A stretch of 20,352 nucleotides of DNA from a virus: positions 1-20,352 of the IMG/VR virus record IMGVR_UViG_3300044613_001247; one strand, 5' to 3'. Under the pieces are notes generated by a model that saw only the letters and a program-made list of their open reading frames with translations, did not search any database and was not told the origin of the DNA. Below, in pieces: positions 2,770-15,142 of the stretch (the first letter of the stretch is position 1; each line of letters begins with the position of its first letter). Made by a program: the position numbers and the translations under genes.

Positions 2770-3945
2770 TTAAAACTTGATAATGAACATGAGGGCAATG
2801 TTACGCGGGCGCGTTTCGCTGCCGCCCGTAGACCCCGTGTTGTACGGCGTAATGGTTTCTGACCCGCCCGTGCCCGTTGTAGTCAGGCCCGACGATGTGT
2901 CGTCATTTGCAGCCGGAGGCTGGACGCTGTGTGTGTGCGCCTCAAGCTCGTCAGCCTGCGCCGAACCAAACGCCCGCGCCGGGTCAATGCCGCGTCCGTT
3001 ATCCCACCCTCGCGCGAACTCACCGCGAAAATCAGGAAGGTTGAACGTTGTGGACCCGTCACCCGACCCAAACACGGTGCCGATGGCAGTGAACAGACCC
3101 GCGTACGTCGTGCGAGATACCGCCGCGCCGTTACATTCCAGCCAACCAGTCGGAGCCGTGTTAGCGCCATACATCGTGATGGAGCCGACAGGGACAGCCG
3201 CCGCAAAAGTGCCAGCCGCGCTAAGGAAGCGAGCCGCTGCCGTATCGCCAGCCGCAGGGGCGGGAACGAGGCCCTTGGTGCCACCCGATCCGCTATCACC
3301 CACAACCGCGCTAAGGATCGTGGTTGCTTGAGCGCCGGTCAAATCCTCAACCACGCCGGTTGAGGCAGTCACCCGACCCTTGATCGTAGCCGTGGCAACC
3401 GTCGCCAGTTTGGCATTCGTGAACGATGCGTCAGGAACGGTCACGGTCGAGGTGAAGGTGGCCGTGCCGTTAAAGGTCTGGTTTCCGGTGAACGTGCCAG
3501 CCGCCGCAACCGACAGCGTATCCGTGCCAGCGTTGCCGATAGTCGTGTTACCGTTGACAGTCAGGTTTCCGGTAACGGTCTGGTTTCCCGAGAACGTCAC
3601 GCCGAGCGGGAACGTCACGCCCGACGACGTAGCCGACAGAACAGCCACGCCGCCGCAGACCAACGCAGCAGAGTTTGCAGCCGGAAAATAAAAGCCGGTG
3701 TCCGTGTCGCCAATCACGGCAATCGACGGTGCTGTAATCAGGCCATCGGAAACGCGGATGCCTTGAGCAAACGGAATGACCGCCGCCGCTGGCGTCTGGC
3801 CATCGGATGCCAGCGATTGCGTAAGCGCCGTGGCGAGGTCCGCAAGCGTGGCGTTCCAATCGTCCGACAGGATAGCGGTTTCCGGGACTGCCGGATTCCA
3901 TGTGTTTGATGGGGGCGAATATGATCCAGAACCGTTGCGGGCCAT
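2770..3945 (-). CDS. Tail fibre with C-terminal phage tail-collar domain
   Basis: 391 aa. Residues 1-55 carry an attachment domain seen in many short-tailed phage fibres (NTWNPAVPETAILSDDWNAT, then ALTQSLASDGQ). A central Gly/Asn/Thr/Val-rich part (residues about 110-170) repeats short units such as TGNLTVNGNTTIGN and is probably a trimeric beta shaft. The C-terminus, from VPVGSITMYGANTAPTGWLE to the end, is a tail-collar (T4 gp12-type) receptor-binding head, with FNLPDFRGEFARGWDNGRG and EAHTHS (His pair that binds metal in this family) and the closing ETRPRNIALMFIIKF. It likely binds a host surface receptor. AAGAGGA precedes the ATG; the stop is followed ten bases later by the tailspike gene. 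Confidence 0.9.
   Translation of the reverse strand: MARNGSGSYSPPSNTWNPAVPETAILSDDWNATLADLATALTQSLASDGQTPAAAVIPFAQGIRVSDGLITAPSIAVIGDTDTGFYFPAANSAALVCGGVAVLSATSSGVTFPLGVTFSGNQTVTGNLTVNGNTTIGNAGTDTLSVAAAGTFTGNQTFNGTATFTSTVTVPDASFTNAKLATVATATIKGRVTASTGVVEDLTGAQATTILSAVVGDSGSGGTKGLVPAPAAGDTAAARFLSAAGTFAAAVPVGSITMYGANTAPTGWLECNGAAVSRTTYAGLFTAIGTVFGSGDGSTTFNLPDFRGEFARGWDNGRGIDPARAFGSAQADELEAHTHSVQPPAANDDTSSGLTTTGTGGSETITPYNTGSTGGSETRPRNIALMFIIKF
3475..3621 (-). repeat. Short imperfect repeats in the tail-fibre shaft
   Basis: Two near-identical 21-base units (3475-3495 and 3577-3597, 102 bases apart) encode F-T/S-G-N-Q-T. A 12-base unit occurs twice 18 bases apart (3592-3603, 3610-3621) and encodes G-V-T-F. 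They lie in frame in the fibre shaft and reflect its repetitive beta structure; they could promote slippage or recombination that changes shaft length. Confidence 0.6.
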
Positions 3946-3947
3946 AT

Positions 3948-6545
3948 CTAATCCTCTTGTCCAGCCGCGACCGCTACGCCCGCACGGATGCGGTTAGCGC
4001 CACGGGGACGGTTAAGCGCACGGGTCAGCCGGGCGTTGAAGTCTTCGGAACCGGCCATCAGCAGATCGGCCAGCGTTTCGGCGTTGCGGCGAGCAAGGAA
4101 ATCATCGACGCCTTGTCCGATCCTCGCGGGAATACCAAGCGGGTTTGTTGCCGATTTTACCGCGCCTGACGCAAGGTTTCCGCCGCGTAGGTTTTGGATT
4201 GCCTCTGTGTTAAACGCGGTTTCCGAACCGGCGCGTTGACGCTGGCCAGTCGCTTGCAAAACCTCGACGAGTTGCGCCATCGGATCAGAACCACGAGCGG
4301 GCGCGGCATTGGCGCTAATGGGTGGGAATGCCATGTTAGGGTCGGGACGGTTTACAACGTCAAGCGCCCCCATAACTGTCCGGCGCTGTTCAGGGTTTCC
4401 GAACGCGCGAGCGGCAAAATTTGCGCCGCCAAACTGGTTGGAACCTGTAGCCAATTCTTGCTGCGCTTCCATCGCTTGACGCGCCAGTTGCTGCCGAACA
4501 AGCGGGCCACCAACAGAAGGGTCAATCTCGCTCATGAGTTCTAGCGCGCGGGCGGTTTCAGCGGCTTGGCCCTCAAACGGCGCGTCAGGGAACAAGCGCC
4601 CCGTCATTGCCGCAAGGTTTGGCGCGGCTTCCGACGTGTCAGCAAGCGCACCAATCGGACCGGCTTTAAGCGGGTCAATAAACGCTTCATTGATGCCGCG
4701 CACCGTGTCGCGGGCCATGCCGTAATCTGGCGAGGCTTCACGGGCCAAAGCATCAGCCAACCGTTGCGCTTCCGTCCGTTGAGCGGCGCGCGTCATGCTT
4801 CCGCCAACCCGCATAGAGTTTGGCGCGGCTTCATCGGCCATCGTGCCGAGTTGCTTCACAACCTCATTGATGACGTTAAGATCATTGTTCGGGCTAGGCG
4901 CTGCGAAGGGGTCGAAAGTGGAGCGAACCGCGTCAGGGTTGCGAACAACAGACTGGCCCGGCGCGCGAATAATGTCCGCCTCCGCTCCCGCGCGGAACGC
5001 CGCACCACCTTTCGGCGTAGTGGTATCGAGAACCGAACCCTGACGAAGAAACGTCGGGTACACCGCTCCTTCACTTCCGGCATATTCCGACGCGATCTGC
5101 GGACGGCGGGTCACATACAAACCTTCGCCAAGCGCCCCGCGCTCGGTCATGTCCGTTCGGAACTCGCCCTCAAATGGCTGGCGAGAGCCGTGGTAATAGG
5201 GCCGGTCTGTGTTGAAGCCTTGCTGTTGTGCTCGCAGCATCCGCACGTCTTGTTCCATTGGCAGTTCACGGCTGAGAAGCGGCGCAAGCTCCTCGTCACC
5301 GCGAACCGCACGCAGTGCGGCGGCAAACGACGGGTTTTCCGTCAGTTGCTGGAACTGTTCAGGCGGGAGAGATTGACCGGGCAGACGTTCATAGAACGGG
5401 CGAGCGTCCTCATTTGCGCGTTGACGCAAGCGCGTCAGCACACCGCCAGCCGCCTCCCGCACTTGAGGCGCAAGAGTAGATGGCTCAACGCTTGGCGCAA
5501 TCTGGTTTAGCCGCGCCTCAATAGCGCCCTGCACCTGAGCGGGGCGATTGGCGAACATCGGGGCCATGCGCGTCGTCTGGCCCTCGACCACACGCTGCAA
5601 GCGGCCAAGGCCTGACCCGCCACCCGTGACTTGCTGAATGGCCTCTGCGTTGGTCAGGTCAACGCCCATCGCCTGCGCGTCACGCCTAAGCGCCGTTGCC
5701 AGTTGCAGGTTCTGCGGGGTTACGCCTTCCGCTGCATTGCGGAGGGAAATGTCAGCACCGCCGCGAACTGCGCCCACGCCACCAACGCCAAACCCGCCAA
5801 GCAGACCGCCACCAAGACGCGCCAAACCCTCTGCCGTCGTATCGCGCTCACCGCCGCTCATGCCGCGCGCAATCTGGCCAGCGGATTCGCTTGCAAGCGC
5901 CGGAACCGCAACCGACGCCACCCGCGTCAACGCTCCGCCCGGTGCCAAACCGCCCGGCAGAAACTCGCCAAGCGTCCGTGAGTATTCTCCCGCGACCGTC
6001 TGAGGCTGGTAATAATCCCGGCCAAGCGCGTCGCGGATGCTTTGGTTGAGGTCTTCGCCGCTTGGCAAAAACCGCGTCATACTCGTGGGGTTTTGCAGGC
6101 TTTCGGGGATTATATCCCGAAGCGAGCCGGGCAAGCCCGCGATACCCGTCAAACCTTCAACCACACCAGTCGGAAAAGATTTTGCGACATCCTCCACGCC
6201 AGATTGCGGACGCTGCATCAAGCCGGGCGACAGCGGCTCGTCGCCGGTTCTAGCCACACCTTCTCGCGCGTCTTCTGGCAGCGCATAAACCGTGCCATCC
6301 GCGCCCCTGACCCACGTTCCGCGCGTCAGACTTGCCACTAGCGCCTGACCCTCTGGCGTAGAGCGGTCAATAGTTGTCAGATCAATCGGGTTGTTTTCGG
6401 TCATGCCCGGTTCGGCGTAATACGCCGCGTCTTCCGGACCGCCGAAATTCTCCTGCATTACGCGCACGATTTCTTGATCAGGCGTCCCTGCCGGAAACTT
6501 GATGACCGTCCCATCCGGGGCGATGATTTCAATGTCCGGTTCCAT
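3948..6545 (-). CDS. Large internal/ejection-type protein with inserted ADP-ribosyltransferase-like domain (865 aa)
   Basis: 865 aa. Residues 1-35 contain IIAPDGTVIKFPAGTPDQEI, an N-terminal motif seen in phage internal proteins. Residues about 195-265 are Gly-rich and hydrophobic (VASVAVPALASES, GGGLLGGFGVGGVGAV), possibly membrane-active. The rest is mostly long helices. Embedded at about 449-547 is a compact, aromatic- and Gly-rich segment: YYHGSRQPF (450-458), GEGLYVTRRPQIASEYA (473-489), AVYPTFL (494-500) and VVRNPDAVRSTFDPF (533-547). This order (HG-S/T, G-x-Y-x-T, then N-P-D-x-[I/V]-R-S-x-F-D-P) is the pattern of ADP-ribosyltransferases of the polyvalent/MuF-associated type. Position suggests injection with DNA, so the domain could modify a host target early in infection. 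The virion role is inferred; catalytic residues are tentative (H452, Y477). Confidence 0.8.
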   Translation of the reverse strand: MEPDIEIIAPDGTVIKFPAGTPDQEIVRVMQENFGGPEDAAYYAEPGMTENNPIDLTTIDRSTPEGQALVASLTRGTWVRGADGTVYALPEDAREGVARTGDEPLSPGLMQRPQSGVEDVAKSFPTGVVEGLTGIAGLPGSLRDIIPESLQNPTSMTRFLPSGEDLNQSIRDALGRDYYQPQTVAGEYSRTLGEFLPGGLAPGGALTRVASVAVPALASESAGQIARGMSGGERDTTAEGLARLGGGLLGGFGVGGVGAVRGGADISLRNAAEGVTPQNLQLATALRRDAQAMGVDLTNAEAIQQVTGGGSGLGRLQRVVEGQTTRMAPMFANRPAQVQGAIEARLNQIAPSVEPSTLAPQVREAAGGVLTRLRQRANEDARPFYERLPGQSLPPEQFQQLTENPSFAAALRAVRGDEELAPLLSRELPMEQDVRMLRAQQQGFNTDRPYYHGSRQPFEGEFRTDMTERGALGEGLYVTRRPQIASEYAGSEGAVYPTFLRQGSVLDTTTPKGGAAFRAGAEADIIRAPGQSVVRNPDAVRSTFDPFAAPSPNNDLNVINEVVKQLGTMADEAAPNSMRVGGSMTRAAQRTEAQRLADALAREASPDYGMARDTVRGINEAFIDPLKAGPIGALADTSEAAPNLAAMTGRLFPDAPFEGQAAETARALELMSEIDPSVGGPLVRQQLARQAMEAQQELATGSNQFGGANFAARAFGNPEQRRTVMGALDVVNRPDPNMAFPPISANAAPARGSDPMAQLVEVLQATGQRQRAGSETAFNTEAIQNLRGGNLASGAVKSATNPLGIPARIGQGVDDFLARRNAETLADLLMAGSEDFNARLTRALNRPRGANRIRAGVAVAAGQED
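4905..5201 (-). other. ADP-ribosyltransferase-like domain within the 865-aa protein
   Basis: This span codes for residues 449-547 of the large internal protein. It carries the H-Y type ART signature: Y451-H452-G453-S454, then G475-L-Y477-x-T479, then a Tyr-rich strand (Y488, Y496), and finally N536-P-D-x-V-R-S-x-F-D-P546. The helical chain on either side (LRAQQQGFN before, LNVINEVVKQLGTMADEA after) reads as one interrupted helical repeat, so the domain appears inserted. No catalytic glutamate could be placed with confidence. Confidence 0.65.
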
Positions 6546-8080
6546 TATTCAAGCTGTCCGGTGTTGGGGTTATAACGGCGTGTTTGGCCGTTAGAACGAG
6601 GCGGCGCTGCCGGTTGACGCGGGCGGCTTGGCGCAGCAGGACGCGGTTGCGGACGCGGGGCGGGGGCTTCTTCCCATCCGTATGCCTGACGAACAGACGG
6701 CGGCACAACGTCATCAAACGCGCCAGCGCCAAGGCTACGGTCCAGAAATTCTCTGCGGCCCATGACTTGCTCACGAATCATGGGCATTTGCGTCCCATAC
6801 AGCGTTTCGGCCACACCGGAGATTTGTGCGCGAATTTCGGGGCTAAACCGACCCGACGACGAGAGATAGCCGCGCAGACCCGCCAAGCCGCCCGCGATGC
6901 CCTGAACTTCCAGTTGCAGATTTACGTCGCCCTCTTTGACCACACCGTCGTCAATAAGGCGTTGCAATCCGTTAACCGCAGCAATGTCGCCCGCGCCGTT
7001 TTGCGCTCCCACGCCTGCCCGCACCGCTTGAATGTTGCGGGTAATTGCGGTTGCTTGGTCGAGAAGTGGGCGAATCCGCTGTTGCTCGCCAGTGATGGCT
7101 GTAAACCGCGCAGTCTGGTTTCCGCCGAGGTCTTCCCTACCGCCGGTTTCTGGAACAAGCGTCCCGTCTCTCAGGCGTCGATAGCCCGCCGTTGGCGTTT
7201 GAACCGTCGAGGCTACGCCGCTTGGATTAATAGAATATGTGGTCCCCTCAACCATGCCAAACGGGTCGTTTGGCCCGGCCACAACGGTTCTGGTTCGCGC
7301 AAGTTCAGGAACGCCTTGCTCACCAAACAGCGGAACCGGCGGCGTCGCGCCAGTCGGGTCAACCAAATACTTGACGCCGTTTTGGTCTGTAACTTCTCTC
7401 CGTTCCGCAGCGGGGGCCGACATCCGTTGACGAACCAAGTCGATTTCTCCGCGCACCCACGCGCCAATTGCGGGATCACCTGTCCGGCGAAACGCGTCAA
7501 CGCCCTCCTGAATCCGGGCCATTTCACCCGGCGTAATCCCAAGCGGGTTAGCAGCCGATTGAGGCGCGATTTGCGGGGCCACTTGCGGGGCATTGACAGG
7601 CGGCGCGGCAAGTTGCGGCATCGGCGGAACGTCTGCCATCGGCGGCATTGCTGCGGGCATTCCAGCCGGAGCGGCGGGACGCATAGGCGAACCCGCAACC
7701 GCTGCAACAGGGGCCGTCATGGCCTCAACGGGCTGTTGCGTGTTGGAGACGGGCGGCACCATTGGAGGCGGCGCAACGGGCGGCATATCTGTAGCGGGCG
7801 GCGCACCACCGGAATCGCGCAACACGCTTGCCAGCGTCAAGCCAAACGCATCCGCTTCGCCCGTCGTCCGTCTTGCCCGTTCGTCCCGCACCGCCCGTTC
7901 AGCACGGTTAGCGCCAAACTGCGTGATGCCTTGGCCGAGAAGCCTAGCCGCAAGCTCGCCGTAGCCGCCCCTAATCTCTACGGGCTGGCGTTGTTGCTCA
8001 AGCAGTTGGGCCAGCATTGCGCTACGGCGCATAGCCGGGGTTTCGATCATCTGCGGGGCAGGCATGGGAGTGCGGGCCAT
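6545..8080 (-). CDS. Internal virion protein with long Pro-rich linker (511 aa)
   Basis: 511 aa. Residues 1-90 are helical and Gln/Arg-rich (RSAMLAQLLEQQRQPVEI, then GYGELAARLLGQGITQFGAN). Residues 91-180 are dominated by Pro, Ala and Met and must be disordered. A folded part follows, with GDPAIGAWVRGEIDLVRQRM, a beta-like middle with DQNGVKYLVDPTGATPPVPL, and a helical domain (GDIAAVNGLQRLIDDGVVKE). The C-terminus is a second Pro/Arg-rich tail. Flexible, elongated proteins of this kind are often stored in the capsid or channel and ejected with DNA; no enzyme motif is seen. Its stop overlaps the next start as TAATG, so it is coupled to the ART-bearing protein. Confidence 0.75.
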   Translation of the reverse strand: MARTPMPAPQMIETPAMRRSAMLAQLLEQQRQPVEIRGGYGELAARLLGQGITQFGANRAERAVRDERARRTTGEADAFGLTLASVLRDSGGAPPATDMPPVAPPPMVPPVSNTQQPVEAMTAPVAAVAGSPMRPAAPAGMPAAMPPMADVPPMPQLAAPPVNAPQVAPQIAPQSAANPLGITPGEMARIQEGVDAFRRTGDPAIGAWVRGEIDLVRQRMSAPAAERREVTDQNGVKYLVDPTGATPPVPLFGEQGVPELARTRTVVAGPNDPFGMVEGTTYSINPSGVASTVQTPTAGYRRLRDGTLVPETGGREDLGGNQTARFTAITGEQQRIRPLLDQATAITRNIQAVRAGVGAQNGAGDIAAVNGLQRLIDDGVVKEGDVNLQLEVQGIAGGLAGLRGYLSSSGRFSPEIRAQISGVAETLYGTQMPMIREQVMGRREFLDRSLGAGAFDDVVPPSVRQAYGWEEAPAPRPQPRPAAPSRPRQPAAPPRSNGQTRRYNPNTGQLE

Positions 8081-8083
8081 CGC

Positions 8084-8971
8084 TTACCGTCCAAACACGC
8101 CAAGGCCAGCCGAGCCAAGGCCAAACAAGCCGCTCATAAGGCCCTGCTGTTGCTGAAGCCGCGTTTGATAGTTCTGGTTCTGCTGGCCAAGGCTCATAGC
8201 GTTAGCGCCGAGAACGTCTGTCTGGCCTACGCCGGTCGGGCTGTATTGAATGCCCTGCGGCATACCGACTTGACCCGTGCCTAACAGCGCTTGAAGTTGC
8301 TGAAGGGGCTGATTCTGGACGTATGCCCGCTCTTGCAGGCCCTGCGTCCGCGCCTGATTACCGAATGTCCCGCCCGCAATGGCTTGCTGAATAGCGCGAG
8401 ATTGCTCCGCACCACCGGCTTGAATGGCTTGGTTGGCTGCCGCTCCGTATGCGTCCGCTCTATCTCTAGCAAAATCAGATCGAAGATTTCGCGTTGCCTC
8501 GCTATTCGCTCCAAGGCCCTGCGCGGCAAGACGAGCATCTTGCGACCTTTCAAGCCGCTGAAACTGGGGGTCAAGGCGGCGGGTCTGGCTGGCATAAAAC
8601 GAATCCTCAAACCGTTGGCGGTCAAAGTCAGGCGCGTTGTAGCCTTGCAGGTCGGGCAGGCCTTCGGTGCTCAAGCCTTGGCCAAGCGCGGTGTTCACGC
8701 GGCCAATCTGTTGGCCAGCCGTATCAAGGGCGCTACCGTAAACGCCCGTTGAGCGTTCGTAGTTTTGCTGCTCCAGCGGGCTGAGTGCCGTTTCTTGACG
8801 ATAACCGCCCGGCGCGGACGGATCGGCCACATAACGCACGGTCCCTTGCGGGCCGGACGTATTGACCATGTTTAGCCGTTGCTGCTCACGCGCGGTCGCG
8901 GTATTTGCCGCGCTTTGCGCGTTGGCAAGCTGGACGGGATCAGGTGCTGCTGGAGGCCGGGGCTTGCTCAC
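8084..8971 (-). CDS. Internal virion / DNA-ejection-type protein (295 aa)
   Basis: 295 aa with GTG start at 8971, eight bases after AAGGA. Composition is rich in Gln, Ala, Arg, Gly and Asn. Landmarks: GPQGTVRYVADPSAPGGYRQ (40s-50s), FDRQRFEDSFYASQTRRLDP in the middle and LAAQGLGANSEATRNLRSDF. The C-terminus is Gln-rich and ends in a Gly/Leu/Phe hydrophobic stretch (GLMSGLFGLGSAGLGVFGR), which could contact membrane. This pattern is common in conserved phage proteins lying between the tail hub and the long internal proteins, where P22 and T7 place their ejection proteins. The exact function is inferred from position and composition. The next gene starts after three bases. Confidence 0.75.
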   Translation of the reverse strand: MSKPRPPAAPDPVQLANAQSAANTATAREQQRLNMVNTSGPQGTVRYVADPSAPGGYRQETALSPLEQQNYERSTGVYGSALDTAGQQIGRVNTALGQGLSTEGLPDLQGYNAPDFDRQRFEDSFYASQTRRLDPQFQRLERSQDARLAAQGLGANSEATRNLRSDFARDRADAYGAAANQAIQAGGAEQSRAIQQAIAGGTFGNQARTQGLQERAYVQNQPLQQLQALLGTGQVGMPQGIQYSPTGVGQTDVLGANAMSLGQQNQNYQTRLQQQQGLMSGLFGLGSAGLGVFGR

Positions 8972-9407
8972 TTACACGGTCCTTGTTGAAACGGTGGACA
9001 CGCCACTCACTTTCGAGAAGACCGGATATGATGCAATCATCGTCACCATAACCACGCCGGATAGTCCCCTCATGTTTGAAACCAAACTTTGAGAGAAACT
9101 GGCGAGCGGGACGCAAACGCTTTGGCGTCAGGCTGGTGATTCTCGCCGCCCCAAGCTGCTGGAACGGATAACGCAAGATACCCGTCACAAGGCGAGGCGT
9201 CAACCAATCGGCGCGCGTAGAGGCAAAACTAACCTCAATGTTACGATATTGAGGCTGATATTGATTGAACACGACGCCGCCAACGAGATGGTCGTGCTTA
9301 TCGACTACCCCGATAGCCTCGCATGGCCCCCAGTCCAGTCCGTGCCCAATCTGGTCTGCTACCCATTGAGCGACCAAGGGCGAAAACGGGCCGGAGACTA
9401 GCCTCAA
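8940..9407 (-). CDS. GNAT-family N-acetyltransferase
   Basis: 155 aa with TTG start at 9407, overlapping the previous stop (TTGA). The GNAT fold is readable: strands 2-3 AIGVVDKHDHLVGGVVFNQY (31-50), strand 4 NIEVSFAST (56-64), helix 3 up to FQQLGAARI (82-90), and helix 4 RPARQFLSKFGFKHEGTIRR (99-118), the usual RimJ/RimL-like ending. The acetyl-CoA pyrophosphate loop is not a good Q/R-x-x-G-x-G/A match, so activity is uncertain. Such enzymes are recurrent in phage tail modules, but their substrate is unknown; a virion or host protein are both possible. The last 32 bases overlap the next gene, whose ribosome site lies in this gene. Confidence 0.85.
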   Translation of the reverse strand: MRLVSGPFSPLVAQWVADQIGHGLDWGPCEAIGVVDKHDHLVGGVVFNQYQPQYRNIEVSFASTRADWLTPRLVTGILRYPFQQLGAARITSLTPKRLRPARQFLSKFGFKHEGTIRRGYGDDDCIISGLLESEWRVHRFNKDRVSEQAPASSST

Positions 9408-11092
9408 AGCTGCCCACCCGTCTGGTTTTCGTATTTGAGGTTAAACGCGATAATCTCGCACGGCGCGTTGGTGTTCCGTGCCGACAAGATGGCTATGATG
9501 CCGTCCGCTTCATAGGCCAGCGACGTATCGTCGTCCACGCCAAGGTCAATGTAGAGCGTCGGCTCAGGCGCAACCCGCATCCGTACCGCGCCGCAATAAC
9601 CAATGCCGGTGACGCTTGTCCAGCTATCGCGCGTTTCCACGGTTTCCGACCACCTAGCCACATCCCAGAGGCCCGTATCCCAACGCCCGCCGGTCGTGCT
9701 GATTGTTGTCGGGACGGCAGTCGGAACCTTCTCCTTGAAGTCCGTGACAATCTCAACCGCCGGGGCTAGTTGCGAGCCAATCCGCAACACCGGCTGCAAC
9801 ATTTCAAACTTTTTCAGGCTCCCGCGCGAGCCAAAATAGTTGAACGCCGTCTTGATGTCGCCAACGATGCCTGTCGTGTTGTCCGCAAAGCCGGTATCCC
9901 ACAGGCAAACCGAATCAGCCGCGCCAAAGTACATTTGGTCATTGGCCACAGCCCAACAAAACGCATTGATGCCCGTAAACCGGCACCATGCGCCCGTCTG
10001 GACGTTCTGCACATATTGCTCCGACCGCGTTAGGCTAGCAGTCGGGACGTTGAAGATTGCCAGCGTCCCCTTGGGATACAGCGCACCTTCCCAGCCAAAG
10101 TTGCCGCGATAGCGTTGTGTCGATTGTTGAAACGCGTTCTGGATTTTCTGCGTCAGTGCAACAAGGTTCTCTTGTGCGCGGTCCAGCTTCAGGGCTTGCG
10201 ACAGCGGCACCACGCCGTCCGTCGTCAGCACCACTAGGTCCGAACCATACTTGATCAGCGACCGGCGCGACAAGGGTAGGCCAAGGTCATAGACACCGAC
10301 AAGTGCCCAGTTGTTAGCGTCCGAAGGGTCAAGGCCCTGATACACGGCCACTTGGCCCTGCGTCGTTACCCACACCGCCAAATCATCGGCACCCGAGCCG
10401 CCATCCAGCGTCCAAGTGGCTTGGCAAAGGATTGACCCGCCCTTGTCGAAAATCGGGCCAAGGTCCAGCAGATTAGCCGCGCCTTGGATAGCGAACGGCT
10501 CAAGGAACCAGCATCGCAGGCTGTCCTCTTGCACAAAGAACAGACGGCCCTTGTGATCCATCACATCGACCAACGTGCGCGGGTCCAGCGTAATCACGCC
10601 AGCCGAACCGGTGATAGCAGTCGAAGCAAACGTAGAGCCGTCGTAATAGACCGGATCAGTAGCCCCGTTGGCCGCAATGAGGAACGTCCCACCGTCATTG
10701 GCAAAGTTGATCCATTGCCAACGCGCGTTGCCAGTGCCAGAAAACACCTCAACCGGCGCGTCGTTCTGGTTGCTTACGTCGTAGATCGAACCACCGGCAG
10801 CCGCGAAAATCTTGTCAGCAGTCGTCGCGACACCACCCCGCCAGACCAGTAGCGATTCAGTCGGCAGCGGCATACCTTCCTGCCACGGGATGTAGCCCTT
10901 ACGCAGTTCCACATAGCCCGCGCGGGGAATGAAGTTGTCCAGAATGACCGCGTTTTCGGCAGGCATATTGGCCAGTGGGGATTGTGCATCCCACCCACCC
11001 ACGGGGGCAGGCACAGCGCGTCCGATAGACACCCGCTGTTGAGATACCGCCCGCAGGGGCTGGCGACCGTATCGCTGCGCCGCTTGTCTCAT
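9404..11092 (-). CDS. Packaged-DNA stabilisation protein (P22 gp10-like)
   Basis: 562 aa from ATG at 11092, which overlaps the previous stop as ATGA; a start 12 bases upstream is less likely. The sequence is almost all beta, with repeated aromatic/Gly strands, as expected for a tail-hub or head-completion protein that closes the portal channel. Landmarks: PVGGWDAQSPLANMPAENAV near the N-terminus, VILDNFIPRAGYVELRKGY, VMDHKGRLFFVQEDSLRCWF and GTLAIFNVPTASLTRSEQYV. These fit the P22 gp10-like family that follows gp4-like adaptors; at 562 aa it is longer than P22 gp10 (about 470 aa). It ends in the TTGA overlap with the acetyltransferase gene. Confidence 0.82.
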   Translation of the reverse strand: MRQAAQRYGRQPLRAVSQQRVSIGRAVPAPVGGWDAQSPLANMPAENAVILDNFIPRAGYVELRKGYIPWQEGMPLPTESLLVWRGGVATTADKIFAAAGGSIYDVSNQNDAPVEVFSGTGNARWQWINFANDGGTFLIAANGATDPVYYDGSTFASTAITGSAGVITLDPRTLVDVMDHKGRLFFVQEDSLRCWFLEPFAIQGAANLLDLGPIFDKGGSILCQATWTLDGGSGADDLAVWVTTQGQVAVYQGLDPSDANNWALVGVYDLGLPLSRRSLIKYGSDLVVLTTDGVVPLSQALKLDRAQENLVALTQKIQNAFQQSTQRYRGNFGWEGALYPKGTLAIFNVPTASLTRSEQYVQNVQTGAWCRFTGINAFCWAVANDQMYFGAADSVCLWDTGFADNTTGIVGDIKTAFNYFGSRGSLKKFEMLQPVLRIGSQLAPAVEIVTDFKEKVPTAVPTTISTTGGRWDTGLWDVARWSETVETRDSWTSVTGIGYCGAVRMRVAPEPTLYIDLGVDDDTSLAYEADGIIAILSARNTNAPCEIIAFNLKYENQTGGQL

Positions 11093-11283
11093 ATCGCCAC
11101 CCATGCCCCGGAACGCTTCTGATAGCCTTGTGCGCCGATATAGAACAACCGGCCATCGGGACTGTCCGCAACATCCGGCAACGTCGAACCATAGCCCGGC
11201 CCATAGGCCGACAGCAGCGCGTTAATCTTCTTGCGCTGCGTCTCTTGGTTCTTGGTGTCCGATATGGAGAGAAACAGGATCAT
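11089..11283 (-). CDS. Small protein between adaptor and stabilisation protein (64 aa)
   Basis: 64 aa from ATG at 11283, overlapping the adaptor stop as ATGA; an in-frame start at 11319 would overlap the adaptor more deeply and is not needed. It ends by overlapping the stabilisation gene start as ATGA. The N-terminus is short and hydrophobic (MILFLSIS), then charged and helical. The C-terminus, SPDGRLFYIGAQGYQKRSGA, has the Gly/aromatic rhythm of small beta repeats in phage structural proteins. No family is recognised. Lying between two head-completion genes, it may be a minor tail-machine part. Confidence 0.72.
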   Translation of the reverse strand: MILFLSISDTKNQETQRKKINALLSAYGPGYGSTLPDVADSPDGRLFYIGAQGYQKRSGAWVAI

Positions 11284-13056: not shown

Positions 13057-13635
13057 CTATGTCCTCCGATACACAGTGTCGTTTCCAATACGCATCACGC
13101 GAGAATAACCGGGCAGATCGGCTTTCGGGCCTAGTCCCTTTTCTTCAAGGACTATGATAGGCGAAAACTTCTCGATTGTCGCTAGTGCGCCTTTAATGGC
13201 GTCCGCCTCCGCGCCCTCTATGTCCAACCAGATCAAATCGCACTGGTCGAGGCCAAGGCCGTCAATGGTCTGGACGGGGATCGCGTCGCCCGGCAGCGTC
13301 TTGTGAGAACCGCAGTTGTCGGTGTCGATGCGAAGGATGCCGCACATTTCTACTCTCGATCCGAGAGCGGCGTAATAGATCGTCACATTCTCAGCCGTGA
13401 CGTTCGCTACCAGACAATCAAGATTGTCGGTGTCTGGCTCCAAGGTGATGACCCGATCAAACACCTTGGCCAGCGCGAGAGGATAGACGCCGACGTTTCC
13501 GCCCGCTTGGACGCAGACACGCTTTTCCTTCACCAGCGGCAGGACAGCGGGCATGGCAGCGGCGCACTCATCTAGCACTACGGCGCGGCAGCGAACGTCA
13601 AAATCAGGCCACCAAAGGCCGGCAATCTGTTTCAT
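13057..13635 (-). CDS. FkbM-family SAM-dependent methyltransferase
   Basis: 192 aa from ATG at 13635, which overlaps the micropeptide stop (ATGA); a start 48 bases upstream would run through the micropeptide and is not preferred. The Rossmann methyltransferase motifs are clear: motif I VCVQAGGNVGVYPLALAK (residues 40-57, SAM binding), the acidic end of the next strand in VITLEPD (62-68), DLIWLDIEGAEADAIKGAL (133-151), characteristic of the FkbM family, and IIVLEEK (160-166). FkbM enzymes methylate hydroxyl groups, often on sugars, which fits the coupled glycosyltransferase upstream. The substrate could be a glycan put on the virion or on the host surface. Glutamine-alanine replaces the more usual Asp/Val-Gly in motif I; this is tolerable, but activity is unproven. 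Confidence 0.88.
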   Translation of the reverse strand: MKQIAGLWWPDFDVRCRAVVLDECAAAMPAVLPLVKEKRVCVQAGGNVGVYPLALAKVFDRVITLEPDTDNLDCLVANVTAENVTIYYAALGSRVEMCGILRIDTDNCGSHKTLPGDAIPVQTIDGLGLDQCDLIWLDIEGAEADAIKGALATIEKFSPIIVLEEKGLGPKADLPGYSRVMRIGNDTVYRRT

Positions 13636-13712
13636 CGACGCGTGTTCACAAAGATGCCGACGACTAGCAGCCACAGCAGCCAAACGGCAAGAAGGCCAAG
13701 AACCAGCATCAT
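13632..13712 (-). CDS. 26-aa single-span membrane micropeptide
   Basis: A 26-codon frame that starts with two ATGs at 13712 and 13709. After the initiator it is a hydrophobic run rich in Leu, Val and Trp (LVLGLLAVWLLWLLVVGIFV), followed by NTRR and a stop. This fits one membrane span with a basic, probably cytoplasmic, C-terminus. It has a near-ideal ribosome site (GGGGAGG, eight bases upstream), overlaps the glycosyltransferase stop as ATGA and overlaps the methyltransferase start as ATGA. That coupling on both sides is strong support for a real gene despite its size. The role is unknown: it could tether the two flanking enzymes at the membrane or act on its own. Confidence 0.7.
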   Translation of the reverse strand: MMLVLGLLAVWLLWLLVVGIFVNTRR

Positions 13713-15142
13713 GCGAGCAACCTCCCCATGTCGGGAATTAGACCCTTCCCGTGGGCAATGACCTTAACGCCACGGTCGCGCAAATACAAAAATGACTGCT
13801 GGAATTCCATGCTCTGCCGGATCATCCATCGGGCGCAAGTGTATGTCTTGTCGCCTAGCACAACATCCATCGTTGGCTCGCCGTCGTTGAGGCTTTGCGA
13901 ATAGGCATGGTGAGCGCCCTCTGCATACGAACTATCGAAGCCGTAGAGGTGGATTTTCTTATAGCCCGACAGCCACGCCAGATTGATGGCGCGAAGGCCA
14001 ACCGTGCCTCCACCGGGCACGAGAACGCAGGGCTTTTGGTTAGGCCCCTCGTCAAACCACGGCTTGATAATGTCCATGAGTTCCTCACCCGAACCCATCG
14101 CATTGTGCCACAGAACAACATCATGCCCCGAAAGCGCATCAAACACGCACGGATGAACCTGTGAAGCGAGGAAGTAGCGCACGGACATTGGCGCATCCTC
14201 GACCATGTGTAGATTTTCTTCCCGCGCATCCAACATCACATGAGCATCCGGCGTGACAGCCCGCTCCGTAAGGTATCGCAGCGCATTGTTGACGCTGATA
14301 ATCTTGGCGCCCCGCCTGCGATGGTCCTTAATGGCCTGCACACTGTCCGCAAGCGAGGGACCGCCACCGACGATAACGCAAGCCTTGTCTTGCTCCCCAA
14401 AGCCTGAGAACCACGGCAAATCCCGCTGCACGTTGGCCCGCACATTGGCATAGGCAAAATCGTGCGTGACGTTCATGCCCTTTAGCTCTGGCATGGCGGT
14501 ATAGCCGCCGACACGCCAGACGCCCGGAACCCACCCGTCCGTCACCTCATGCGGTTTGGGCTGGCCGTGGAATATAACCGCCTTGGCCGTCTCAGGGGGC
14601 CACGACACCGCGTCACGGTAAGACACGAACATTTCGGGTGGAAAGGTCTTCCACGAACTGACTTGGCTGATCCATTCCTGATCACCCCCGTTAATCTGGC
14701 CAGCGGGGAGCAGTCCCGTCAGGCTTTCCGTGGGGCGCGTCATCACGTCCGGCGTGAACCGTTCCCAAATGTCCGCGTGTTCGCCATGACGCCAGCGCAT
14801 CACAGACGAATTGTAGCAAGGCCAGTGCCAATCCTTGATAATACCAAGCGGCAAGCCCTCAAGCCTGCCAGTCACGCATACGTCTAGGTCCATATACAGA
14901 ACCTCGTCGCCAAGTTCCCACGGCATACCGTTAGCGGCGAAAAGCATCACTTTTTGCCACCAACCGGGCAAGCGCGGATTGTGCGGAATGCCTGTAATGC
15001 CGTCCGGAAGTCCATCAATGTCGTCAGTCAGGCACCAATGGTGCTGCGGTTCGTCCAGATGGCGGGCAATGCCATCGTGAAGGCGGGTGACGTATTCAAT
15101 CGGGTACTTGTCCCCGACGCGGACGCTGACAACGTTAATCAT
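13709..15142 (-). CDS. Two-domain glycosyltransferase / DUF115 (MAF-like) protein
   Basis: 477 aa. Residues 1 to about 215 look like a GT-A-fold glycosyltransferase: a nucleotide-sugar-type DxD motif (D85-L-D87, in VLYMDLDVCV), NGGDQEW at 151-157 and FHGQPKPHE at 191-199. Residues about 250-470 look like the DUF115/MAF_flag10 fold: CVIVGGGPSL at 255-264, ISVNNALRYL at 282-291 and GTVGLRAINLAWLSGYKKIH at 379-398, followed by LYGFDSSY. MAF proteins of this superfamily are implicated in sugar transfer to flagellins in other bacteria. A fusion suggests glycan transfer to a protein or surface structure, either virion or host. The substrate is unknown. It begins behind a terminator hairpin with GGAGGT close to the ATG and overlaps the next micropeptide gene as ATGA. 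Confidence 0.85.
   Translation of the reverse strand: MINVVSVRVGDKYPIEYVTRLHDGIARHLDEPQHHWCLTDDIDGLPDGITGIPHNPRLPGWWQKVMLFAANGMPWELGDEVLYMDLDVCVTGRLEGLPLGIIKDWHWPCYNSSVMRWRHGEHADIWERFTPDVMTRPTESLTGLLPAGQINGGDQEWISQVSSWKTFPPEMFVSYRDAVSWPPETAKAVIFHGQPKPHEVTDGWVPGVWRVGGYTAMPELKGMNVTHDFAYANVRANVQRDLPWFSGFGEQDKACVIVGGGPSLADSVQAIKDHRRRGAKIISVNNALRYLTERAVTPDAHVMLDAREENLHMVEDAPMSVRYFLASQVHPCVFDALSGHDVVLWHNAMGSGEELMDIIKPWFDEGPNQKPCVLVPGGGTVGLRAINLAWLSGYKKIHLYGFDSSYAEGAHHAYSQSLNDGEPTMDVVLGDKTYTCARWMIRQSMEFQQSFLYLRDRGVKVIAHGKGLIPDMGRLLA
13721..13727 (-). promoter_or_regulatory. Ribosome binding site of the 26-aa micropeptide gene
   Basis: GGGGAGG on the minus strand, eight bases before the ATG at 13712 and lying inside the last codons of the glycosyltransferase gene. 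The ideal sequence and spacing decide that the 26-codon frame is a real translation unit. Confidence 0.7.

What the first reader, a model, noticed from the sequence alone, without database searches (positions are those of the whole stretch)
4905..5201. ADP-ribosyltransferase-like domain inserted in a likely injected virion protein
Residues 449-547 of the 865-aa protein carry the ordered ART motifs (HGS; G-L-Y-V-T; Tyr-rich strand; NPDxVRSxFDP) inside an otherwise helical internal protein with a Gly-rich hydrophobic part. The surrounding helices read as one interrupted repeat, so the domain looks inserted. If the protein is injected with the DNA, the phage delivers a host-modifying enzyme at time zero, conceptually like T4 Alt but built into an ejection protein. 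Motif order is seen directly; the ART family pattern is established knowledge; injection is inference.
Basis: partly seen in the sequence, partly recalled or inferred. Interest (0 to 1): 0.85.

Follow-up and report, generated by a model that had tools for sequence, protein, structure and literature searches.

The report
Swappable enzyme slot in ejection protein
A short-tailed phage carries a compact ADP-ribosyltransferase-type domain inside a protein it probably injects with its DNA, and close relatives have an empty gap, a different version of this domain, or an unrelated domain at the same place, which suggests that the injected protein is a carrier with exchangeable cargo.

Summary
Residues 449-546 of the 865-aa protein (window 4905-5201, minus strand) are a compact close relative of the ART-PolyVal family: Pfam 29.5 bits, just under the 31.2 cut-off; 36.3 bits with a profile built only from other phage ARTs, against at most 8.8 for 500 shuffles; all 50 listed structural neighbours of a low-confidence model are ARTs.

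It is a real insertion. The segment (residues 423-553) is absent from 18 of 24 homologous IMG/VR phages and from two distant homologues. At exactly this site others carry two ART versions that pass the Pfam cut-off, a weaker fourth version, and one non-ART DGxHR (ParB-like by motif) domain. Cargo travels with its flanking helices by recombination and is swapped inside them. Purifying selection on the window's cargo is strong (17 synonymous, 3 non-synonymous differences).

Ejection is inferred from gene order and from a homologue with an N-terminal injection-type transglycosylase domain. Catalysis is unproven: H452 and Y477 remain, but the strand-5 acidic residue is Q531 (N536 at the other candidate position).

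ARTs in injected phage proteins are known; the swappable slot with natural empty controls is the new part.

The parts
3948..6545 (-). 865-aa carrier protein, last of the internal virion (ejection) protein run; homologous in 24 IMG/VR records, a Rhizobium phage and a Bosea prophage
   Evidence: synteny
4887..5279 (-). cargo slot: residues 423-553, absent from 18 of 24 homologous phages, replaced by other cargo in 5
4905..5201 (-). ART-PolyVal-like core, residues 449-547
5208..5264 (-). lead-in helix, residues 428-446 (LPMEQDVRMLRAQQQGFNT), the same type of lead-in as in ARTs of unrelated phage proteins
5190..5192 (-). H452, strand-1 active-site His of the family (HGS)
   Evidence: alignment A6: invariant column; family active site in PMC5512222
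5115..5117 (-). Y477, strand-2 position (GLYVT); Y, F, W or another residue in relatives
4953..4955 (-). Q531 at the strand-5 position that is Glu in 5 of 10 other versions in alignment A6 (L002, 98% identical to the window, left out)
4938..4940 (-). N536, the other candidate position (Asp of the FDP motif in most relatives)
5280..5468 (-). 5' flank, residues 360-422: part of the carrier allele that travels with the cargo
4626..4886 (-). 3' flank, residues 554-640: part of the carrier allele
5766..5948 (-). two hydrophobic Gly-rich stretches, residues 200-218 and 242-260, possible membrane-insertion segments before the slot
   Evidence: hydropathy, (1.31 and 1.17); inference
6545..8080 (-). 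511-aa internal protein just upstream, much more variable than the genes before it
8084..8971 (-). 295-aa virion structural protein (phrog_6121)
   Evidence: E 7e-32
8940..9407 (-). GNAT-like protein at the start of the internal-protein run (phrog_4470)
   Evidence: E 1e-29
9404..11104 (-). tail tube B-like protein (phrog_5107, annotated there as amidase; assigned here by order and size)
   Evidence: E 6e-123; order
2770..3945 (-). tail collar or fibre protein directly downstream

Best explanation
The 865-aa protein is a gp16-like ejection protein that acts as a carrier with one cargo slot. In this phage the slot holds a compact ART-PolyVal-type domain. The protein is packaged in the head, leaves ahead of or with the DNA, and its region after the hydrophobic segments, with the slot, reaches the cytoplasm. 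There the domain binds NAD+ and most likely ADP-ribosylates a host macromolecule early in infection. Cargo is changed by homologous recombination in the flanking helices and by replacement inside them, so that related phages carry none, another ART version, or a different domain. Shown here: ART family relationship, insertion, cargo exchange, purifying selection, syntenic context. Inferred: ejection, cytoplasmic exposure, catalysis, target.
For: ART relationship: PF18760 in the window's slot; L020 39.9 bits and L003 33.4 bits, both over the cut-off, at the same site (44.2 bits for L020's contig); L020 versus window slot BLASTP 4e-18; independent profile 36.3 bits versus shuffles at most 8.8; the 50 rows listed by the structural aligner are all ARTs, best Z 4.9; BFVD matches E 3e-5 downward, many named ART-PolyVal. 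Insertion and exchange: 18 empty, 6 ART, 1 non-ART among 25 homologues; DNA identity of window and L002 peaks at 95-99% in the slot and falls to about 45-75% over most of the rest; all cargo carriers form one group by flank sequence (8 rows, 2 of them empty) but are scattered on trees of the N and C parts, 5 changes each (Fisher p 3e-4). Constraint: dN/dS 0.05 in the slot. Ejection: order tail tubes, GNAT, 295-aa, 511-aa, 865-aa, collar conserved in the loci; L016 has an N-terminal transglycosylase domain, phrog_873 4e-38, also a tail-injection transglycosylase family, as T7 gp16 does (PMC8954989); the protein before the homologue in Rhizobium phage RHph_N65 is annotated 'putative injection protein'.
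Against: The window's own Pfam score is 1.7 bits under the curated cut-off and covers only the first half of the profile. The acidic strand-5 residue is Q531/N536. No sequence match to T7 gp16 or any solved ejection protein. No virion proteomics for these uncultured phages. Selection rests on one pair of sequences.
Confidence: 0.55

Rival explanations
1. Ejected pseudoenzyme: the ART fold is kept to bind NAD+, ADP-ribose or a partner protein, for example to mask a target or soak up a defence signal, without transferring ADP-ribose.
For: Q531 and N536 replace the acidic residues at both candidate strand-5 positions; several other phage versions also lack Glu there (I, V, S, N in L040, L003, L051, L041); about 38 positions are missing. 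Selection keeps the sequence anyway.
Against: H452 and Y477 are kept; the L020 version at the same site has Glu at this position; some known ART-fold enzymes work without the canonical Glu (own knowledge of mono-ADP-ribosylating PARPs).
Confidence: 0.3
2. Structural variability only: the slot lies in an exposed loop of the conduit that tolerates folded domains, and the cargo has no intracellular role (decoration, spacing, antigen-like variation).
For: 18 of 25 homologues have none, so cargo is dispensable for ejection; the neighbouring 511-aa protein and the tailspike vary strongly too.
Against: The cargo is drawn repeatedly from one enzyme family typical of injected polyvalent proteins; strong purifying selection on the cargo.
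Confidence: 0.12
3. The 865-aa protein is not ejected; it stays in the head or tail, and the ART acts during assembly or on the producer cell late in infection.
For: No proteomics; no detectable similarity to solved ejection proteins.
Against: Syntenic position at the end of the tail tube and internal protein run (general order in PMC10386132); injection-type transglycosylase domain in L016; hydrophobic segments.
Confidence: 0.1

Closest known systems
ART-PolyVal (PF18760, Tox-ART-HYD2 clade) domains of phage polyvalent proteins, Iyer et al. 2017, PMC5512222
   Same: Same sequence family by profile; HG[ST] strand 1, aromatic strand 2, (V/I)RSxF(D) end; carried in phage late-region proteins predicted to be injected; ParB-like, GNAT and metallopeptidase domains as companions
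   Different: Single cargo in a discrete slot of a small podovirus ejection protein with empty-slot relatives; compact; strand-5 acidic residue replaced by Gln/Asn
N4-like virion RNA polymerase with ART (Roseovarius Plymouth podovirus 1, cited in PMC5512222)
   Same: ART-PolyVal-type domain built into a podovirus protein that is ejected
   Different: Giant vRNAP of another lineage; no RNA polymerase here; per-phage cargo exchange not described in the passages read
Phage T4 Alt
   Same: Head-packaged, injected ADP-ribosyltransferase (PMC5512222)
   Different: Separate protein of the R-S-E Alt/VIP2 clade, not H-Y-D/E; free internal protein, not part of an ejection conduit
T7 gp16 / podovirus ejectosome proteins (PMC8954989)
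   Same: Position at the end of the internal protein genes; transglycosylase domain at the N terminus of one homologue; hydrophobic part followed by a long helical part
   Different: No detectable sequence similarity; T7 gp16 is not described there with an ART
MuF-ART fusions and free head ARTs (PMC9503650)
   Same: ART fused to a head protein for packaging
   Different: Carrier is not MuF; here the ART is internal to the carrier chain

Membership tests
ART-PolyVal (PF18760) | Pfam score over the curated cut-off of 31.2 bits | tested here: not met
   29.5 bits for the slot, 25.3 for the whole protein; versions at the same site in L020 and L003 do pass. Hence filed as close relative, not formal member
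ART-PolyVal (PF18760) | significant profile similarity including the strand-1 HG[ST] motif | tested here: met
   E 1.5e-6; independent profile 36.3 bits versus shuffles at most 8.8
ART-PolyVal (PF18760) | H on strand 1 and Y on strand 2 | tested here: met
   H452 and Y477 aligned with the family positions
ART-PolyVal (PF18760) | acidic residue (D, or E) on strand 5 | tested here: not met
   Q531 at the Glu column, N536 at the FDP column; which column is catalytic was not established
ART superfamily | split beta-sandwich fold | tested here: inconclusive
   models of pLDDT 54 and 59; all 50 listed VIA-align rows are ARTs but Z at most 4.9; BFVD best E 3e-5
ART superfamily | NAD+-dependent transfer | not testable with these tools
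   needs biochemistry
Polyvalent proteins (Iyer et al. 2017) | two or more unrelated effector domains in one chain | tested here: not met
   one cargo domain in the window's protein; no second Pfam family
T7/P22-type podovirus ejection protein | gene position in the internal virion protein run after tail tube B | tested here: met
   order conserved in the loci
T7/P22-type podovirus ejection protein | presence in the virion and release into the host | not testable with these tools
   uncultured phage
T4 Alt (Alt/VIP2, R-S-E clade) | R-S-E active site | tested here: not met
   H452 in strand 1 in place of Arg; family description from PMC5512222

The most novel reading that the evidence does not exclude
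The ejection protein is a general delivery chassis: a defined slot between two helices accepts unrelated folded domains (at least ART and a DGxHR/ParB-like domain), which phages exchange by recombination in the flanks to match host defences, so that each related phage injects a different effector with its conduit.
Probability: 0.4. Interest if true: 0.75.

Novelty: new variant of a known kind. Interest (0 to 1): 0.57.

Why it matters
Injected phage effectors are usually predicted from giant proteins or from gene neighbourhood alone. Here nature supplies matched pairs: nearly the same ejection protein with an empty slot (window and L007 are 96% identical in the C part), with four ART versions, and with another domain. 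That makes it testable what an injected ART adds, and it marks a site at which a podovirus conduit protein tolerates a folded domain of about 130-205 residues, of interest for studying how such proteins unfold and pass the portal.

Tried and rejected
Chance resemblance of the motifs: rejected by the profile built without the window and by shuffles. Ancestral domain lost in the others: less likely, since the two distant homologues (Rhizobium phage RHph_N65, Bosea prophage) and 18 of 24 relatives lack it, but loss in L014/L030, which sit in the carrier flank group without cargo, is not excluded. Foreign composition of the insert: none, GC 61.8% versus 61.9% for the rest of the gene. First AlphaFold alignment (A3) was misaligned in the last strands; a second, cleaner one (A6) raised pLDDT only to 58.7. 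Sequence search of PDB with the ART profile gave only non-significant matches to exotoxin-type ARTs. ParB identity of the L028 cargo: Pfam and NCBIfam find nothing, PHROGs ParB-like E 0.23, so it is named by motif only. Papers on an ART in an internal virion or ejection protein slot: none found in the held library.

Full report
WHAT IS THERE. The window is an IMG/VR virus record holding the late region of a short-tailed phage. On the minus strand run portal, scaffold-like protein, major head protein, tail tube A and B, a GNAT-like protein, a 295-aa virion structural protein, a 511-aa protein, the 865-aa protein of the finding, a collar/fibre protein and a tailspike-like protein. The same order is found in the related loci. 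Related portals occur in Bradyrhizobium, Rhizobium and Myxococcus Mx8 phages, and distant homologues of the 865-aa protein in Rhizobium phage RHph_N65 and a Bosea prophage, so an alphaproteobacterial host is likely (inference).

THE DOMAIN. Residues 449-547 correspond exactly to the coordinates given. hmmscan finds ART-PolyVal (PF18760) with E 3e-5 in the whole protein and 1.5e-6, 29.5 bits, in the slot alone; the curated cut-off is 31.2. A profile from ten ART domains of other phage proteins, none from this family, gives 36.3 bits in two blocks, profile 1-72 and 110-135 of 141, while 500 shuffles reach at most 8.8 bits. The window's domain is therefore a compact version that lacks the stretch between strand 3 and the last strands. 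The AlphaFold models are poor (pLDDT 53.8 and 58.7), yet the 50 rows listed when the second is compared with solved structures are all ARTs (exotoxin-type catalytic domains, PARPs, KptA/Tpt1), Z up to 4.9, and its viral matches are largely ART-PolyVal proteins. Each of these alone is modest; together with homology to the L020 version (BLASTP 4e-18, partly from shared ends) they make the ART assignment secure.

ACTIVE SITE. The published family description is His on strand 1, Tyr on strand 2 and Asp on strand 5 (PMC5512222). H452 and Y477 are in place. On strand 5 the relatives have Glu in L020, L042, L044, L045 and L049, other residues in L003, L040, L041, L047 and L051; the window and its near-identical relative L002 have Q531, and N536 where many have the Asp of FDP. 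Whether the domain transfers ADP-ribose is thus open.

THE SLOT. Among 25 homologues (window plus 24 IMG/VR records) 18 have no insert between the positions of residues 422 and 554; seven have cargo: the window and L002 share one ART version (98%); L020/L026 carry a second, over the Pfam cut-off (39.9 bits); L003 and L004 a third, over the cut-off (33.4 bits); L005 a weak fourth (19 bits); L028 carries 155 residues with no ART similarity and a DGNHR motif, ParB-like by motif only. Its flanks are nonetheless 89% and 95% identical to the window's.

HOW CARGO MOVES. Window and L002 are 95-99% identical in DNA across the slot, but about 45-75% over most of the rest. On trees of the N part and of the C part the cargo state needs five changes; on the tree of the slot's flanks all cargo carriers fall into one group of eight, with L014 and L030, which are empty (Fisher exact p 3e-4 without correction for relatedness). 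L007 is 96% identical to the window in the C part but has the other flank type and no cargo. The simplest reading is that a carrier module (helix, cargo, helix) spreads by homologous recombination and that cargo is replaced inside it. Two further scans with the flanks as queries found no additional carriers.

SELECTION. Between window and L002 the slot has 17 synonymous and 3 non-synonymous differences (dN/dS 0.05; binomial p 5e-5 even with a synonymous expectation of 0.40), and the core 8 and 1. The domain is not decaying. This is one pair of sequences.

EJECTION. Not shown directly. For it: gene order; published descriptions of tube B followed by ejectosomal protein genes that are the most mosaic part of such genomes (PMC10386132); an N-terminal transglycosylase domain of head/injection families in the homologue L016, as in T7 gp16, whose C-terminal part is placed in the host cytoplasm (PMC8954989); two hydrophobic Gly-rich stretches before the slot. 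Against: no similarity to solved ejection proteins and no proteomics.

MECHANISM. Best-supported chain: packaging in the head (inferred), ejection with the conduit (inferred), exposure of the region behind the hydrophobic stretches to cytoplasmic NAD+ (inferred), modification of a host molecule (inferred, weakened by Q531/N536), exchange of cargo between phages (shown). Rivals are an ejected pseudoenzyme, a purely structural loop decoration, and a protein that is not ejected.

KNOWN AND NEW. ARTs in virion proteins predicted to be injected are established (PMC5512222, PMC9503650), including in an N4-like podovirus vRNAP. New here are the discrete slot in a small podovirus ejection protein, the empty and alternatively filled relatives, and the evidence for module exchange. 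I therefore rate it a new variant of a known kind.

Noticed in passing
L028 7129-7593: At the same slot a 155-aa non-ART cargo with a DGNHR motif (ParB/sulfiredoxin-like by motif); a 52% relative lies in a 484-aa late protein of another contig (L055 286-669).
   Followed up: partly
L058 760-2385 (-): The phage of L027, whose slot is empty, has a separate 541-aa ART-PolyVal-like protein beside a small-terminase-like gene; none of 18 other related records searched has it.
   Followed up: partly
L016 5515-6000: Homologue of the 865-aa protein with an N-terminal transglycosylase-type domain (phrog_873, E 4e-38) instead of the short N terminus; N termini of this family are exchanged as well as the slot.
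   Followed up: partly
L037 7807-8814: In a Bosea prophage a metallopeptidase-like gene (HEIGH motif, weak Pfam matches) lies directly upstream of the 865-aa homologue.
   Followed up: no
window 13057-15142: FkbM-type methyltransferase (PF05050) and an MptE-like protein (PF01973) between the major head protein and tail tube A genes, unusual inside a structural module; possibly surface sugar modification.
   Followed up: no
window 6545-8080: The 511-aa protein before the carrier is 37-93% identical among relatives whose neighbouring genes are mostly 80-95% identical, so both of the last two internal proteins are hypervariable.
   Followed up: no
L021 2752-4233: Octadecabacter Antarctic DB virus 2 gp6, next to the terminase, joins a DGRHR (ParB-like) region and an ART with the same lead-in helix; 13 IMG/VR contigs have related ARTs in late proteins, with LPD23 or GNAT-like domains in two of them.
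   Followed up: partly
L014, L030: Empty slot with the carrier-type flanks: either the state before insertion or a loss of cargo.
   Followed up: partly
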